Notes under the pieces: generated by a model | Told to the model about the DNA's origin: nothing | The model's database searches: none | Seen by the model: only the letters and a program-made list of their open reading frames with translations | Position numbers and translations under genes: made by a program | In this document: positions 29,523-34,826 of the stretch, piece after piece | How the letters are laid out: the number at the start of each line of letters is the position of its first letter | How positions within the stretch are numbered: the first letter of the stretch is position 1 | DNA from: Altererythrobacter sp. C41 | GTDB lineage: Bacteria; Pseudomonadota; Alphaproteobacteria; Sphingomonadales; Sphingomonadaceae | Length of the DNA stretch: 40,955 bases | Reading direction: 5' to 3' | Assembly: GCF_016803135.1 (NCBI RefSeq) | Contig: NZ_JAEVFE010000013.1 | Location: 1-40,955 of the forward strand

Positions 29523-30233
29523 TCAGAGCTGTTCGTCGCTCTCGTTCTCGGCGGCGCGGCGAGCTTCAAGCCAGGCGGCGGCTTCGGCTTCCTGTGCAGC
29601 TTCGGCGGCGGCCTTCTCGTTCGCGTCGCGTTCGGCGCGCAGTTCGGCGATCAGCTTCTCGCGGTCCGTCCCCGAATCGACCACCGGCGCAGGCGCCTCA
29701 CCCTCGGCGCCGGCCTTCTTCGCCGCCTTGGCGACGACCGCGTCGAGCTCGCGCTGCGAGCACAGGCCGAGCGTCACCGGATCCTTCGCCTGGATGTTCT
29801 GGATGTTCCAGTGGCTGCGCTCGCGAATCGCGGTGATCGTGTTGCGCGTGGTGCCGATCAACTTGGAGATCTGCGCGTCCGAAATCTCCGGATGGTTGCG
29901 CAGGATCCACGCGATGCCGTCGGGCTTGTCCTGCCGCTTCGACACCGGCGTGTAGCGCGGGCCCTTGGTCCGCGTGACCTCGACCGGCGCCCGCTGCATC
30001 TTGAGCGCGTAACCCGGATCGGCCTGGCCGCGCTCGATCTCCTCCTGCGTCAGCTCGCCCGAGTGGATTGGATCGCGGCCGGTGTACTTGCTGCCTGCAA
30101 GATCGTCGGCCATCGCCTGGACCTCGAGGATGTGCAGGCCGCAGAAGTCTGCGATCTGCGTGAAGCTGAGCGAGGTGTTGTCGACGAGCCAGGTGGCGGT
30201 CGCATGCGGCATCAGCGGGGTGGGTTGCGCCAT
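29523..30233 (-). CDS. trcR: TrcR-like cell-cycle transcriptional regulator (DUF1013)
   Basis: A 236-residue protein of the DUF1013 family, confined to Alphaproteobacteria and known in Caulobacter as TrcR, which binds RNA polymerase and controls the cell-cycle methylase gene ccrM. It begins MAQPTPLMPHATATWLVDNT with a helix-turn-helix-like segment (LSFTQIADFCGLHILEVQAM), then PGYALKMQRAPVEVTRTKGP, then a second helix-turn-helix (ISDAQISKLIGTTRNTITAI) and an Ala/Glu-rich helical tail (about 190-236). ATG 30233 has AGGA about 11 bases upstream; the open frame extends to 30311 but runs through a terminator-like hairpin and is rejected. Its role here is inferred from the family. Confidence 0.88.
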   Translation of the reverse strand: MAQPTPLMPHATATWLVDNTSLSFTQIADFCGLHILEVQAMADDLAGSKYTGRDPIHSGELTQEEIERGQADPGYALKMQRAPVEVTRTKGPRYTPVSKRQDKPDGIAWILRNHPEISDAQISKLIGTTRNTITAIRERSHWNIQNIQAKDPVTLGLCSQRELDAVVAKAAKKAGAEGEAPAPVVDSGTDREKLIAELRAERDANEKAAAEAAQEAEAAAWLEARRAAENESDEQL

Positions 30234-30249
30234 GATCGAAACTGTCCTG

Positions 30250-30281
30250 AAAATATAAGGGCCGCCCCTTGCGGAGCGGCC
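30250..30281 (-). terminator. intrinsic terminator or attenuator just upstream of trcR
   Basis: On the minus strand GGCCGCTCC-GCAA-GGGGCGGCC forms a 9-bp stem (one G-T pair) closed by a GCAA tetraloop, followed directly by CTTATATTTTC. This is a strong Rho-independent terminator shape. It lies about 70 bases after the stop of the glycosyltransferase at 30351 and only 17 bases before the trcR ATG. It can end the glycosyltransferase transcript, but there is almost no room for a promoter between it and trcR, so control of trcR by read-through is possible. Confidence 0.65.
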
Positions 30282-30350
30282 GTTGCACAGGCGATTTAGG
30301 CCATGCGTCATGCGAGGGCAAGCTTTTCGGCCCTCGATCGGTCCGGAAGC

Positions 30351-31427
30351 TCAGGCCACCAGCGGCTCCGCGTCGAGCGCGGCAAGCCCGGCGAGGAACT
30401 GATCGGTCGCCGCATCCCACGAATAGCGCGCGCCCATTTCTGCGCAGTCGGCACGGTCGCTGAACAGGGCGCCGGCGATCGCGCGGTCGAGATCTTCCGA
30501 CAATGCGCCGACGCGGTGGGTCACGATGTCGCGCGGACCCGGGACAGGGAACGCCGCCACCGGCGTTCCGCAGGCGAGCGCTTCGATCATGACCAGCCCG
30601 AAGGTGTCGGTCCGGCTCGGGAAGACGAACACGTCGGCATGGGCATAGCATCCGGCCAAGGCGCGGCCACTGCGGCGCCCGAGGAAATGGGCTTCCGGGA
30701 ATTTCGTGCTGAGCTCCTCAAGAGCCGGGCCGTCGCCGACGACGACCTTGGTGCCCGGATAGCTGCCGGTCAGGAACGCCTCGAGATTCTTCTCCACCGC
30801 GACGCGGCCGACGTAGAGCTGAATCGGGCGCGGCAGGCCTTCGAACTCCGAGGGCAGCGGCGCGTCGCGATTGAAGCAAGTCAGGTCGACGCCCCGGCTC
30901 CAGGGATGGAGGCGGCGCAGTCCGCGCGCCCGCAGTTCCTCGCGAATGCTCTCGGTCGCGACCAGCACCTGGCGCGAGGGCGCGTGGAACCAGCGGATGT
31001 AGCGCCAGAACAGCGCCGGCGAGAGGCCGGTGCGCCGCGCAACGTATTCCGGAAACTGCGTATGGTATGCCGTGGTGAAGGGAATGCCGCGCACCGTGCA
31101 GAACCGCCGCGCGCCGAGCCCCAGTGGCCCTTCGGTCGCGACATGGATCGCATCGGGCGCCAGCGCCGTGAGCCGCCGCCCGATCGCGCCGGGCAGCGGC
31201 ATCGCCAGGCGAATGTCGGGATAGGTCGGGCACGGCACCGAGCGGAAACCTTCGGGCGAGATCACCTCCACCTCGTGCCCCCGCGAGCGCAGGATGTCGC
31301 AGGTCGCAGCCAGGGTGCGGACCACGCCGTTCATCTGGGGGGTCCAGGCATCGGTGACGATGGCGATCCGATGCGGATAGGGCCGCACGGTGTCCGCTTC
31401 GGCCACGACTGCCTCCATCCGGCTCAT
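30351..31427 (-). CDS. GT4-family glycosyltransferase (MgtA/sulfoquinovosyl/diacylglycerol-type)
   Basis: A 358-residue GT-B glycosyltransferase. The N-terminal segment HRIAIVTDAWTPQMNGVVRT and RGHEVEVISPEGF are typical of GT4 enzymes that glycosylate membrane lipids (MgtA, SqdX types). PFTTAYHTQFPEYVARR lies near 120, LYVGRVAVEKNLEAFL near 215 and FVFPSRTDTFGLVMIEALAC near 270-290 with the E-x7-E motif. A phosphoesterase gene upstream (32821-33720) would lie immediately before it but for the IS110 element, so the pair probably formed one operon acting on envelope lipids. The insertion junction is only a few bases from its start codon, so expression may now depend on the element. Start ATG 31427 or 31418. 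Confidence 0.86.
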   Translation of the reverse strand: MSRMEAVVAEADTVRPYPHRIAIVTDAWTPQMNGVVRTLAATCDILRSRGHEVEVISPEGFRSVPCPTYPDIRLAMPLPGAIGRRLTALAPDAIHVATEGPLGLGARRFCTVRGIPFTTAYHTQFPEYVARRTGLSPALFWRYIRWFHAPSRQVLVATESIREELRARGLRRLHPWSRGVDLTCFNRDAPLPSEFEGLPRPIQLYVGRVAVEKNLEAFLTGSYPGTKVVVGDGPALEELSTKFPEAHFLGRRSGRALAGCYAHADVFVFPSRTDTFGLVMIEALACGTPVAAFPVPGPRDIVTHRVGALSEDLDRAIAGALFSDRADCAEMGARYSWDAATDQFLAGLAALDAEPLVA

Positions 31428-31444
31428 GCCGCCCTATCCTTTTG

Positions 31445-31595
31445 CGGCTGTGAGAACAGTAGCTGACGCGGCGGTGCTGGTATGGTTTTCATGCTGGCTG
31501 CCCAGGATGGTTCAGGTGGCAGATCCGCCAGCACCGCCAACTCGTCTCGACCGCTGATTAGGCTCTGCGATCGATCGCTGCATAGGGCGGAGACG
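31445..31595 (+). ncRNA. candidate IS110 bridge RNA (two-loop guide RNA)
   Basis: The 5' non-coding end of the IS110 element folds into three parts. A small stem-loop CTGT-GAGA-ACAG (31448-31459). A large stem-loop with an 11-bp perfect stem, GGCGGTGCTGG (31470-31480) with CCAGCACCGCC (31528-31538), and a 47-base loop containing a small inner stem. A second stem-loop, GTCT-CGA-CCGC (31544-31554) with GCGGAGAC (31587-31594), and a 32-base loop. This is the order known for bridge RNAs of IS110 recombinases. In the second loop ATTAGGCT (31557-31564) is identical to the right junction (32820-32827), and ATAGGGCGG (31582-31590) is the reverse complement of the left junction (31429-31437). Expression is not shown. 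Confidence 0.65.
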
Positions 31596-31639
31596 GCGTA
31601 GACGGGATGCCGAGGTTCGACCAGCCATAGGAGGAGATC

Positions 31640-32812
31640 ATGCCGCAGATCAGCGCCGGCATCGACATCGCCAAGGAGGTGCATTGGATTACTGCCATCG
31701 ACGAAGCCGGAACGGTACTCATCGATCACGAGCTCGACAATGATCCCGCGGCTATCGCCGCGCTCGTCGACGAACTCGCCGCGCTGGACGGCGCGGTACG
31801 CGTCGGCTTCGACGTCATCGGCGGCATCGCCGGTCTTGCCGAAGCGATGCTCGCGGCGTCGGGCTGCACGCTGCTCCACGTCCCCGGCCTCGCGGTCAAC
31901 CGCGCCCGTCAGGGCACCGTCGGGGGCGAGAACAAGTCCGATCCCAGAGATGCACGCACCATCGCCGACCAGGTCCGTACCCGTTACGATCTGCGGGTCA
32001 TCGAGCCAGCAGGCGAGATCGACATCGAGCTCAGGCTGCTCGTTGGCCGGCGTCGCGACCTGGTACAAGCTCAGACCCAGCGGATCGCACGCATGCGCGA
32101 CTTGCTCACCGGCATCTTCCCCGCCCTCGAACGCGCGCTGGATCTGACCACCAAGGGGCCGCTCCACTTGCTGACCCGCTACGTCACTCCCGCCGAGCTG
32201 CGTCGCGCTGGCGCTAAACGCATCGGCCGCCATCTTCAGGCGAGTCGCGGCGGGGCAGCCATCTGTGCTCAGGCCCTCGCATGCGCCCGCGCCCAGACCA
32301 TTGCCGTCCCCGGGGAGGCCATGACTGCCACCCTCATCCGCGAGCTCGCTCAGGAAGCGCTTGCTACCCGCACGCGTCTCGGCGAGATCGACCGCGATCT
32401 CAAGGAGCGGCTCGCCCGCCACCCTGATGCGGCCCTCATCCAGAGCCTGCCCGGCATGGGGGCCATCCTCACCGCCGAACTTATCGCCGAGGCAGGCAAC
32501 CTCTCCCGCTTCCGTTCGCCCGACGCTCTCGCCGCTGCCGCAGGCATCGCCCCAGTCCTCAGGCAATCGGGCAAAACCCGCTTCCTCAGACGGCCCACCG
32601 GCGGCAACAAGGGCCTCAAACGCGTCTTCTACCAAGCCGCCTTCTGCTCGCTTGCATCCCCCGACAGCCGCGCCTTCTATGATCGCAAGCGACGCGAAGG
32701 AAAACGGCACCATCAGGCTGTCATCGCCCTTGCCAGACGGCGCGTGAATGTCCTCTGGGCCATGCTCCAGACACACCAACCCTTCCAAACCGGCTTCAAA
32801 AATGCAGCTTGA
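31640..32812 (+). CDS. IS110-family transposase (DEDD/serine recombinase)
   Basis: A 390-residue transposase with the N-terminal RuvC-like DEDD domain and the C-terminal transposase_20 domain. Acidic residues are Asp9 (AGIDIAKEVHW), Asp58 (VGFDVIGG), Asp101 and Asp104 (NKSDPRDARTIAD). Many IS110 enzymes have Glu at the second position, so Asp58 marks a subgroup. The C-terminal domain has the helix-hairpin-helix-like SLPGMGAILTAELIAEAGNL and the segment APVLRQSGKTRFLRR, where the serine after Q is the likely nucleophile, then YQAAFCSLASPDSRAFY. The ribosome site GGAGGAG lies a few bases before the ATG. The frame is intact, so the element may be active. It is inserted on the opposite strand to its host operon. 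Confidence 0.93.
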   Translation: MPQISAGIDIAKEVHWITAIDEAGTVLIDHELDNDPAAIAALVDELAALDGAVRVGFDVIGGIAGLAEAMLAASGCTLLHVPGLAVNRARQGTVGGENKSDPRDARTIADQVRTRYDLRVIEPAGEIDIELRLLVGRRRDLVQAQTQRIARMRDLLTGIFPALERALDLTTKGPLHLLTRYVTPAELRRAGAKRIGRHLQASRGGAAICAQALACARAQTIAVPGEAMTATLIRELAQEALATRTRLGEIDRDLKERLARHPDAALIQSLPGMGAILTAELIAEAGNLSRFRSPDALAAAAGIAPVLRQSGKTRFLRRPTGGNKGLKRVFYQAAFCSLASPDSRAFYDRKRREGKRHHQAVIALARRRVNVLWAMLQTHQPFQTGFKNAA

Positions 32813-32820
32813 CCCACGCA

Positions 32821-33720
32821 TTAGGCTGCCGCCTTCGCGGCGGGCGAAGCCACGACGTCAAACCGCGCGCGGCGCGCCATTTCCTCGGGCCAGTGAAGCA
32901 GTTCCATGCGCCCGTCGAAGTGCTCGACCAGCGCGGTACAGCCTTCGACCCAGTCGCCGTCGTTATAGTATTCGATGCCCCCGAAGGCACGGATCTCGGC
33001 CGTATGGATATGCCCGCACACAACCCCGTCCACGCCCCGCTCGGCGGCGGCGCGAGCAACGATCTCCTCGTAGCGGCTGATGAACTCGACCGCGTTCTTG
33101 ACCTTGTGCTTGGCCACCTTGGACAACGACCAGTAGGGCAGGCCGAACGCCTTGCGCACGACGTTGACCCACCGGTTGAGCCCCATGAGCAGATGATAGA
33201 GCACGTCGCCGACCACAGCGAGCCAGCGATGTGCGAGCATGATCGCATCGAACTCGTCGCCGTGGAGCACCATCAGCCGGCGTCCGTCAGCCGTATCGTG
33301 GAAAGCGGCGCGGCGGATCTCGACCCCGCCGAAGTTCATGCCCGAGAACGGGCGCAGCATCTCGTCGTGATTGCCCGGGATGTAGACGATCCGCGTGCCG
33401 CGCTTGGCGCGCTTGAGGATGCGCCAGACGACATCGTTGTGCTCGGCCGGCCAGTAGACCTTCTTCTTCAACCGCCAGCCGTCGATGATGTCGCCGACGA
33501 GGTACATCGTCTCGCTGTCGGTGCTGTCGAGGAAGTCGATCAGCATCGCGGCGTTGCAGCCCTTGGTGCCGAGATGGATGTCGCTGATCCAGATCGTGCG
33601 GAACTTGCGCCGCTTGCCGTCGACCGGCTCGGGAATCGCGCTCCTTACCGGCGGCAGACTCGCCACCGTCGCCAGCTCGGCCAGACCGCCCGGAAGCCCT
33701 TTGATCCGTTCTTCGCCCAT
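32821..33720 (-). CDS. LpxH-like metallophosphoesterase (UDP-2,3-diacylglucosamine diphosphatase family)
   Basis: A 299-residue calcineurin-like phosphoesterase with all metal-binding blocks: ISDIHLGTKG near 48, LVGDIIDGWRL near 78, YIPGNHDEML near 117, LMVLHGDEFDAIM near 154 and VVCGHIHTAEIR near 238. The W and H following D-I-I-D-G are typical of LpxH-like enzymes, although the protein is longer than E. coli LpxH (about 240 residues), and such relatives in alphaproteobacteria may act on other lipid intermediates. ATG 33720 with GGAG 8 bases upstream is chosen over GTG 33729. Its stop codon is now formed at the IS110 junction; reconstruction suggests the original stop was TAG with the same protein end. 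The glycosyltransferase at 30351-31427 was probably its operon partner. Confidence 0.88.
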   Translation of the reverse strand: MGEERIKGLPGGLAELATVASLPPVRSAIPEPVDGKRRKFRTIWISDIHLGTKGCNAAMLIDFLDSTDSETMYLVGDIIDGWRLKKKVYWPAEHNDVVWRILKRAKRGTRIVYIPGNHDEMLRPFSGMNFGGVEIRRAAFHDTADGRRLMVLHGDEFDAIMLAHRWLAVVGDVLYHLLMGLNRWVNVVRKAFGLPYWSLSKVAKHKVKNAVEFISRYEEIVARAAAERGVDGVVCGHIHTAEIRAFGGIEYYNDGDWVEGCTALVEHFDGRMELLHWPEEMARRARFDVVASPAAKAAA

Positions 33721-33905
33721 CGCCCGCACTCCGCTAGCGAATGCATCTTCACGTCCGTCACATGACAGGCAATTGTTACAGGCGATTCACGGTTCGGTGA
33801 CCGTTCCGCGAAAGCGTGACAGTCTGGCGACGCACGCGAAACCTTGCCGGGCGGACGAGGCCACACTTGCTATCACCTGTAGATTGCTCGAAGATTCACC
33901 CAGCT

Positions 33906-34826
33906 ATGCGCACCGATCTCGATCATCTTCCCGCGGCCAAACAGCGCGAGCTTGAGCGCATCGTAGAGGTCATCTTCGATGAGTTTGGTGCAGCGATCGA
34001 GAACGCGACTGGCCCGCGCAAGGGCGCGCGCATTCTCAAGATCATCCTGTTCGGCAGCCATGCACGCGGCGACTGGGTCGATGCGCCGATGTCGGCCAAC
34101 CAATACAAGAGCGACTACGATATCCTGGTCATCGTCAGCCAGAAGGAGATGACCGACCGCGCCGCCTATTGGGCGAAGGCCGAGGAACGGCTGATCCGCG
34201 CTTACACGATCGAGAAGACGCTGCGCACGCCAGTGAACTTCATCGTGCACTGCCTGCACGAGGTGAACGATGGTCTCGCACACGGGCGCGTGTTCTTTAT
34301 GGAAGTCGCGAAGGACGGGATCGCGCTTTACGAAGCCGACGATCGCGAACTCGCTACCCCCACGCCGAAGACACCGCAGCAGGCGCTGGAGACGGCGCGG
34401 GAGTATTTCGAAGACTACTATCCAAGCGCCGGAGAGTTCTTCGACGATTTTCGTTCGAACCTTGAACGGAGTCGCTTCAAGAAGGCAGCATTTGAACTGC
34501 ATCAGGCAACCGAGCGGCTCTACGCATGCCTGCTTCTCACCCTGACCTTTTACACCCCCTACAACCACAACATCGCCTTCCTCCGCTCCCTCGCCGAAGG
34601 ACTGGACCGACGCCTTCACGGCATATGGCCGGAAGATGGCCGCCGCGAGCGCGCCATGTTCCAGAAGCTGAAAGAAGCCTACACCAAGGCACGCTACTCC
34701 AAGCACTACAAGATCACCGAGGAAGAACTGACCTGGCTTGGTGAACGGGTCGAGGAACTGGGCCGTGTGGTCCACGAGGTCTGCTCCGAACGGATCGCTG
34801 CTCTGGAAGCCGCCGCGCGCGGGTAG
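33906..34826 (+). CDS. nucleotidyltransferase-HEPN fusion protein
   Basis: A 306-residue two-domain protein. The N-terminal MNT-type nucleotidyltransferase (about residues 35-140) has IILFGSHARGDWVDAP and YKSDYDILVIVSQKE, with the G-S-x-A-R-G-D and D-x-D acidic residues intact. The C-terminal HEPN domain (about 170-300) is all-helical with FKKAAFELHQATERLYACLL near 195 and AYTKARYSKHYKITEEEL near 260-280. Split versions of these two domains form HEPN-MNT toxin-antitoxin pairs, in which the nucleotidyltransferase AMPylates the HEPN RNase; here both are in one chain, as in a family common in sphingomonads. ATG 33906 is chosen over upstream open frame. The biological role of the fused form is unknown. 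Confidence 0.85.
   Translation: MRTDLDHLPAAKQRELERIVEVIFDEFGAAIENATGPRKGARILKIILFGSHARGDWVDAPMSANQYKSDYDILVIVSQKEMTDRAAYWAKAEERLIRAYTIEKTLRTPVNFIVHCLHEVNDGLAHGRVFFMEVAKDGIALYEADDRELATPTPKTPQQALETAREYFEDYYPSAGEFFDDFRSNLERSRFKKAAFELHQATERLYACLLLTLTFYTPYNHNIAFLRSLAEGLDRRLHGIWPEDGRRERAMFQKLKEAYTKARYSKHYKITEEELTWLGERVEELGRVVHEVCSERIAALEAAARG

What the first reader, a model, noticed from the sequence alone, without database searches (positions are those of the whole stretch)
31429..32830. IS110 bridge-RNA candidate whose second loop matches both insertion junctions
The 5' non-coding end shows the small stem-loop plus two large stem-loops expected for a bridge RNA. In loop 2, ATTAGGCT (31557-31564) equals the right junction (32820-32827) and ATAGGGCGG (31582-31590) is complementary to the left junction (31429-31437). 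Both carry the shared TA, so the two guides would pair with opposite strands of the reconstructed site CCGCCC-TA-GGCT. This would make a readable guide-to-target assignment for a TA-core element. Loop 1 begins TATGGTTTT, similar to the element's own left end TATCCTTTT, so it may be the donor loop; that would reverse the loop order known from IS621. The GGCTGCC at 31496-31502 also occurs at 32824-32830.
Basis: partly seen in the sequence, partly recalled or inferred. Interest (0 to 1): 0.78.

Follow-up and report, generated by a model that had tools for sequence, protein, structure and literature searches.

The report
Jumping element hiding between operon genes
A bacterial mobile element carries an RNA that appears to guide it into the overlap between two neighbouring genes, where its own end replaces the first gene's stop signal and an unbroken reading frame on its reverse strand runs through to the second gene, so that it may sit there with little disturbance.

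Summary
This is an IS110-group element with a plus-strand, IS621-type bridge RNA. The uninterrupted site in same-genus relatives puts the ends outside "TA": the core is GC (31431-31432, 32828-32829), the element 31433-32827. Loop 2 is the donor-binding loop, matching the element's own ends; loop 1 is the target-binding loop; the order is that of IS621.

Across 62 related elements the guides of both loops follow target, donor and core (GC, TC, GT, CC) far beyond permutation; only the donor-loop handshake is weak.

Beyond the claim: the target is a start-stop overlap (RTGA in 31 of 34 closer relatives with both flanks). In 34 of 34 the right end supplies a stop at the third codon from the core, where the native stop lies in 32. 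In 25 of 34 an ORF antisense to the transposase runs from an ATG at that stop through the whole element to the host's own TGA. Codons that would interrupt it are absent from 34 transposase genes (0 of 13,353). I read this as selection for frame-preserving, perhaps non-polar insertion, akin to IS900 hed. Everything is computational.

The parts
31433..32827 (+). IS110-group element without the cores, 1395 bp (465 x 3)
   Evidence: empty site in same-genus relatives; length
31431..31432 (.). left copy of the core dinucleotide GC
32828..32829 (.). right copy of the core dinucleotide GC
31640..32812 (+). IS110-family recombinase, 390 aa
   Evidence: PF01548 and PF02371; PDB relatives ISCro4 and IS621
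31446..31620 (+). predicted bridge RNA; both ends approximate, transcript not observed
   Evidence: consensus fold and strand test, covariation, fold
31489..31495 (+). left target guide in loop 1 (TCATGCU against left target TCATGCC)
   Evidence: first six positions 282 of 354 matches, permutation mean 196
31514..31520 (+). right target guide in loop 1 (AGGUG) plus core pair GC (31519-31520)
   Evidence: 260/307 (mean 125) and core 123/124 (mean 90)
31521..31522 (+). loop-1 handshake bases AG, complementary to the last two bases of the left donor
   Evidence: 109/124 (mean 52)
31557..31564 (+). left donor guide in loop 2, ATTAGGCT
   Evidence: 457/496 (mean 359)
31582..31588 (+). right donor guide in loop 2 (AUAGG) plus core pair GC (31587-31588)
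   Evidence: 309/310 (mean 255) and core 122/123 (mean 90)
31589..31590 (+). loop-2 handshake bases GG; match the left target in the window, weak across the family
   Evidence: 39/119 (mean 30), p 0.011; representatives 23/65, p 0.09
31424..31430 (+). left target TCATGCC (host strand GGCATGA)
32830..32834 (+). right target CGCCT
32809..32814 (+). TTGACC, -35-like half of the promoter formed in the circle
   Evidence: 17-nt spacing in the joined ends
31435..31440 (+). TATCCT, -10-like half of the promoter formed in the circle
32821..32823 (-). TAA stop supplied to the upstream host gene by the element's right end
31424..32821 (-). host-strand ORF antisense to the recombinase, 465 codons, from TAATG to the host TGA of ATGA
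32821..33729 (-). upstream host gene, calcineurin-like phosphoesterase
30351..31427 (-). downstream host gene, family 4 glycosyltransferase

Best explanation
An IS110-group element placed by its own plus-strand bridge RNA. Loop 1 (target loop) reads TCATGCC-GC-CGCCT, which contains the ATGA overlap of two host operon genes; loop 2 (donor loop) reads the element's own ends; strands are exchanged at the shared GC core, leaving one GC at each end. In the excised circle the joined ends would form a promoter for the bridge RNA. On the host strand the insertion keeps the reading frame: the right end supplies the last codons and a TAA stop of the upstream gene, overlapped by an ATG that opens a frame of 465 codons through the whole element, ending at the host TGA that overlaps the next gene's ATG. 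Shown by sequence: ends, core, RNA strand, guide pairing, reading frames, absence of antisense stops. Inferred: that the RNA is made and guides insertion (about 0.95), that selection keeps the host-strand frame open (about 0.8), that it is translated and lessens polarity (about 0.5).
For: Recombinase family. Empty site equal to the reconstructed site over 18 bases in L128 and L129. Core equal at both ends in 34 of 34 representatives. Plus-strand RNA: G.U 108 against A.C 23 and 97 against 6. Guide tests far above permutation. Joined ends give TTGA[CT]N-17-TANNNT in 53 of 62. Closer relatives with both flanks: native in-frame stop 32 of 34, supplied stop 34 of 34, RTGA 31 of 34, same last two residues 27 of 34. 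Host-strand frame free of stops across the left end 28 of 37 against 5 of 74 in the other antisense frames and 5 of 111 in sense frames. TTA, CTA and TCA codons 0 of 13,353 in 34 recombinase genes against 27 of 9,775 in flanking host genes, with other A-ending codons mostly not depleted.
Against: No transcript, protein or insertion assay. Single-sequence fold unremarkable. Loop-2 handshake weak. Nine of 37 closer elements have lost the host-strand frame, some with an intact recombinase frame, and it runs through in only 9 of 25 distant ones. Nine of 34 lack at least one of the five site features. Elements are related, so counts are not independent. GTA, not an antisense stop, is also at half the host rate. 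At up to two mismatches the target pattern is only modestly commoner in the genome than its control (184 against 131).
Confidence: 0.85

Rival explanations
1. One reading: TA is the core, loop 2 holds the target guides, loop 1 the donor guides, in an order opposite to IS621.
For: The matches exist, and with TA taken as core loop 2 does match flanking bases in relatives.
Against: Empty site in relatives; TA unequal at the two ends in 14 of 34 representatives; loop 1 matches the bases outside the GC core.
Confidence: 0.02
2. Split target: loop 1 reads the outer and loop 2 the central target through long handshakes. This was my own interim model.
For: The position table looks this way when TA is taken as core.
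Against: The central bases belong to the element: copies L068, L073, L076 and L077 share them while the bases outside differ.
Confidence: 0.01
3. The host-strand ORF is kept because it encodes a functional protein (a hed counterpart), not because translation through the element matters.
For: Start and stop placement suit expression from the host operon; IS900 hed is named host expression dependent (PMC8141618, passages).
Against: No Pfam match; the ORF overlaps recombinase and bridge RNA nearly completely; some elements with an intact recombinase frame have lost it. Neither point excludes a protein.
Confidence: 0.25
4. The open antisense frame is a by-product of GC-rich codon use and common descent, without selection.
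For: Antisense frames in codon phase are often long in GC-rich genes (established knowledge); elements are related; GTA is also reduced.
Against: The non-coding left end is open in this frame only (28/37 against 5/74); left-end lengths differ mostly by multiples of 3 (8 of 11 distinct lengths); TTA, CTA and TCA are absent where the host rate predicts about 38.
Confidence: 0.15

Closest known systems
IS621 and its bridge RNA (PMC11208160, PMC11208158; passages read)
   Same: Recombinase domains, bridge RNA in the left end on the recombinase strand, target loop before donor loop, 7 + 2 + 5 target, guides ending at the core, two handshake bases in the target loop, promoter across the joined ends.
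   Different: Core GC, TC, GT or CC instead of CT, changing together with the guides; target is a start-stop overlap instead of REP sequences; host-strand frame kept open.
IS900 of Mycobacterium avium subsp. paratuberculosis and its hed ORF (PMC8141618; passages read)
   Same: Target motif containing CATG beside gene starts, insertion rarely inside coding sequence, complementary-strand ORF spanning the element.
   Different: According to those passages hed has no own start codon or RBS; here the element supplies ATG overlapping a restored stop, and the ORF ends at the host TGA. I did not fetch or analyse IS900.
ISEc21 and IS1111 elements with seekRNA (PMC11187229; abstract and passages read)
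   Same: RNA-guided; in the IS110-type ISEc21 the bottom-strand match lies 5' of the top-strand match, as here.
   Different: IS1111 members have the RNA downstream of the recombinase gene and the opposite order.

Membership tests
IS110 group (bridge RNA in left end) | RuvC-like DEDD domain and Tnp domain with catalytic serine | tested here: met
   PF01548 and PF02371 above cut-off. Acidic residues D9, D58, D104 and serine 310 invariant, D101 at 90% or more, in 17 relatives; their catalytic roles are inferred, and D58 stands where IS621 has E60 by recalled motif only.
IS110 group (bridge RNA in left end) | Long non-coding left end with two internal-loop stem-loops on the recombinase strand | tested here: met
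IS110 group (bridge RNA in left end) | Target loop and donor loop follow target and donor across elements | tested here: met
   the donor-loop handshake alone is weak
IS110 group (bridge RNA in left end) | Same core dinucleotide at both ends, one copy in the empty site | tested here: met
IS110 group (bridge RNA in left end) | Promoter across the joined ends of the circle | tested here: met
   in silico only: 53 of 62, spacing 17; window copy included
IS110 group (bridge RNA in left end) | RNA expressed, bound by the recombinase and needed for recombination | not testable with these tools
   needs experiments
IS621-type specificity | CT core | tested here: not met
   GC here; no CT among 62. 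So it works like IS621 but is not a CT-core element.
IS900 / hed arrangement | Complementary-strand ORF spanning the element, placed at host translation signals | tested here: met
   window and 25 of 34 closer relatives
IS900 / hed arrangement | Homology to the hed protein | not tested
   IS900 not fetched
IS900 / hed arrangement | Expression of the product | not testable with these tools
   no expression data

The most novel reading that the evidence does not exclude
A clade of RNA-guided IS110 elements has evolved frame-preserving insertion: the target loop is set to RTGA start-stop overlaps, the donor end is written so that it re-creates the host protein's last codons and stop, and the whole element, recombinase gene and bridge-RNA gene included, is kept as one open cistron on the opposite strand so that ribosomes can pass from the upstream to the downstream host gene, making the insertion non-polar.
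Probability: 0.5. Interest if true: 0.78.

Novelty: new variant of a known kind. Interest (0 to 1): 0.62.

Why it matters
It gives a readable guide-to-target code for a clade away from IS621, with four natural core dinucleotides that change together with the guides, which bears on how far bridge recombinases can be re-addressed. If the frame reading holds, a guide RNA, a donor end and an antisense reading frame have been fitted together so that insertion costs the host little. It also makes the old question of what the IS900 hed frame is for directly testable: translation through the element, or a protein product.

Tried and rejected
TA core and reversed loop order: rejected by the empty site. 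Minus-strand bridge RNA (my idea in note): rejected by pair counts. Split target with extended handshakes (note): rejected. Loop-1 TATGGTTTT as donor guide: no covariation with left-end bases. Rfam: no match in the window at gathering scores. Pfam: none for the antisense ORF. Relatives at the E-values used: 1 of 396 genomes of the window's order, its own; 2 of 385 of its class; 6 of 293, 1 of 2, 1 of 297 and 7 of 249 in the other orders tried.

Rows dropped: of 105 distinct transposase loci, 77 had an ncRNA match within 330 nt upstream; both ends were located in 63; L120 (ambiguous right end) was dropped, leaving 62. L026, L010, L124 and L122 were left out of the ncRNA alignment. Left ends of about a dozen distant elements were placed by hand with loop 2 in view. 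A rule using the left-end sequence alone gave a unique place in 32 of 62, of which 25 agreed with the hand placement and 7 did not; the statistics of that subset still used the hand placement, so they are no independent check of position. The core-equality test uses the same placements; the empty-site test does not. No codon model on a tree was fitted.

Full report
What is in the window. The gene at 31640-32812 (+) encodes an IS110-family recombinase (PF01548, PF02371); its PDB relatives by sequence are ISCro4 and IS621. It is single copy in its genome.

Relatives. Of 105 distinct transposase loci, 77 carry an ncRNA-profile match within 330 nt upstream of the gene; both ends could be placed in 63 and 62 were used: 37 "closer" (transposase identity at least 50%) and 25 "distant". 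Thirty-four representatives remain when ncRNAs more than 85% alike are thinned.

Strand of the RNA. On the plus-strand consensus fold, G.U pairs outnumber A.C pairs 108 to 23 (36 closer sequences) and 97 to 6 (25 distant). With the fold derived from the minus strand the counts are 38 G.U against 94 A.C and 4 against 47, again saying plus. The single-sequence fold of the window copy is unremarkable (z -1.28).

Where the ends are. With TA as core, loop 2 seemed to read the central and loop 1 the outer target, and I held a split-target model for a time. Same-genus relatives without the element settle it. L128 and L129 read AAGGCGGCGGCATGAGCC on the host strand: the upstream gene ends ...GCA TGA, overlapping the ATG of the next gene; L127 and L130-L132 carry variants of the same uninterrupted junction. 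The window reads AAGGCG-GC-[element]-GC-GGCATGAGCC. The duplicated core is therefore GC (31431-31432, 32828-32829), and the bases around TA belong to the element. In addition, the dinucleotide at these offsets is the same at both ends in 34 of 34 representatives, against 20 of 34 for TA. Over all 62 the left/right core pairs are GC 41, TC 11, GT 7, CC 1, one AC/TC and one with an unread base.

Guides in the corrected frame (matches, permutation mean in brackets, 62 elements). Loop 1: left target guide 282/354 (196), right target guide 260/307 (125), core 123/124 (90), handshake to the left donor 109/124 (52). Loop 2: left donor guide 457/496 (359), right donor guide 309/310 (255), core 122/123 (90), handshake to the left target 39/119 (30; p 0.011, in representatives 0.09). 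The other seven tests reach the smallest p that 3,000 permutations allow, in all 62 and in the 34. Order, strand and lengths are those of IS621 (passages of PMC11208160 and PMC11208158): 5' side of each loop to the bottom strand, 3' side to the top strand, 7 + 2 + 5 target, two handshake bases. The core differs (CT in IS621) and changes together with both guides. Not every left guide fits in this register: in several distant elements it is shifted by one or two bases (read by eye). The conserved TTGAC of the right end and TA of the left end make TTGA[CT]N-17-TANNNT in the joined circle in 53 of 62 elements, like the sigma-70-type promoter reported for IS621.

Copies test. Another (G1616) holds three copies whose right targets agree (CTTTC) while the left targets differ and at most one resembles the left guide, so the left guide can be loose. 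In the window's own genome the 14-base target pattern has one exact free site and 17 with one mismatch; of these 18, five (the exact one included) are RTGA overlaps with both frames open for at least 60 codons. At up to two mismatches there are 184 places against 131 for the reversed control pattern, so the enrichment there is modest.

What the target is. Of 34 closer elements with both flanks, the native site has an in-frame stop at the third codon from the core in 32 and is RTGA (TGA overlapping ATG or GTG) in 31; the inserted element supplies an in-frame stop at that third codon in 34. All features together (native TGA, start codon, both host frames open for at least 60 codons, supplied stop) hold in 25; the other nine are L014, L015, L016, L017, L019, L023, L074, L077 and L079. 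The last two residues before the stop are Ala-Ala before and after in 25 and Ala-Glu before and after in two; in the remaining seven they differ. In the window the protein end Lys-Ala-Ala-Ala is the same as in L128 and L129. Distant elements fit less well: several target gene starts or ends in another register.

The host-strand frame. All of these 34 elements have an ATG overlapping the supplied stop. In 25 of 34 the frame opened there ends exactly at the host TGA; in the window it is 465 codons, 32821 to 31424. Over the left end, which does not code for the recombinase but holds the bridge RNA, this frame is free of stops in 28 of 37 closer elements, the two other antisense frames in 5 of 74 and the sense frames in 5 of 111; over the whole element, 27 of 37 against 0 of 74. 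In distant elements the whole-element figures are 9 of 24 against 0 of 48 and the left-end figures 10 of 24 against 9 of 48. Element length is a multiple of 3 in 29 of 37 closer elements; left-end length is in 15 of 18 representatives, and 8 of 11 distinct left-end lengths are. The antisense frame is in codon phase with the recombinase, so its stops would be TTA, CTA or TCA codons: 0 of 13,353 codons in 34 closer recombinase genes, against 27 of 9,775 in flanking host genes. At host rates about 23 TTA or CTA and 14 TCA would be expected; CCA, ACA, GCA, GGA and the A-ending Arg codons are near or above expectation, ATA slightly below and GTA at about half. Distant elements do have such codons (9 of 1,074 Leu, 3 of 391 Ser). 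Against: 9 of 37 closer elements have lost the frame, and relatedness means that these are not independent events; no tree-based codon model was fitted.

Mechanism. Shown by sequence: ends, core, strand, guide pairing, frames. Inferred: the bridge RNA is made from the circle and guides insertion into start-stop overlaps; ribosomes leaving the upstream gene may re-start at TAATG, cross the element and re-start at the host ATGA. Such translation would shield the message from Rho-dependent termination (established knowledge of polarity); alternatively the frame encodes a protein. The closest precedent is IS900, whose target motif CATGNNNNNNTCTCCTT and complementary spanning ORF hed are described in PMC8141618 (passages).

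In print. Searches of the held library listed no paper whose title or abstract start describes antisense-frame conservation with start-stop targeting in bridge-RNA elements; one search found no paper at all, and most listed papers were not opened. The library lacks preprints and most subscription papers, and the figures of PMC11208160 that show other bridge RNAs could not be seen. So this is not proof of absence.

Noticed in passing
L071, L060, L061, L066, L108, L110, L115, L118 and other distant loci: Natural core dinucleotides GT, TC and CC, each mirrored in both the right target guide and the right donor guide: a natural record of core re-programming.
   Followed up: partly
L040: A relative with a shortened transposase (Phyllobacterium plasmid) sits between genes annotated as 8-amino-7-oxononanoate synthase and dethiobiotin synthase of a biotin operon. 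It is not among the 62.
   Followed up: no
L033, L036: Where the native host end is Ala-Glu-stop, the element end also encodes Ala-Glu-stop, with a different Glu codon; too few cases to call it co-adaptation.
   Followed up: partly
window 31640-32812: Second acidic residue of the RuvC-like domain seems to be Asp58 instead of Glu, invariant in 17 relatives; the correspondence to IS621 E60 rests on a recalled motif.
   Followed up: partly
L006 and L025: Two copies in one Ramlibacter contig with the same ncRNA row differ in the last left-donor base (T and G); mutation or repair after strand exchange are possible.
   Followed up: no
window 33816-34826: ORF of 336 aa with a C-terminal HEPN domain; the N-terminal part looks like a nucleotidyltransferase by eye only.
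   Followed up: no
window 29523-30311: TrcR-family cell-cycle regulator (PF06242), two genes downstream of the insertion.
   Followed up: no
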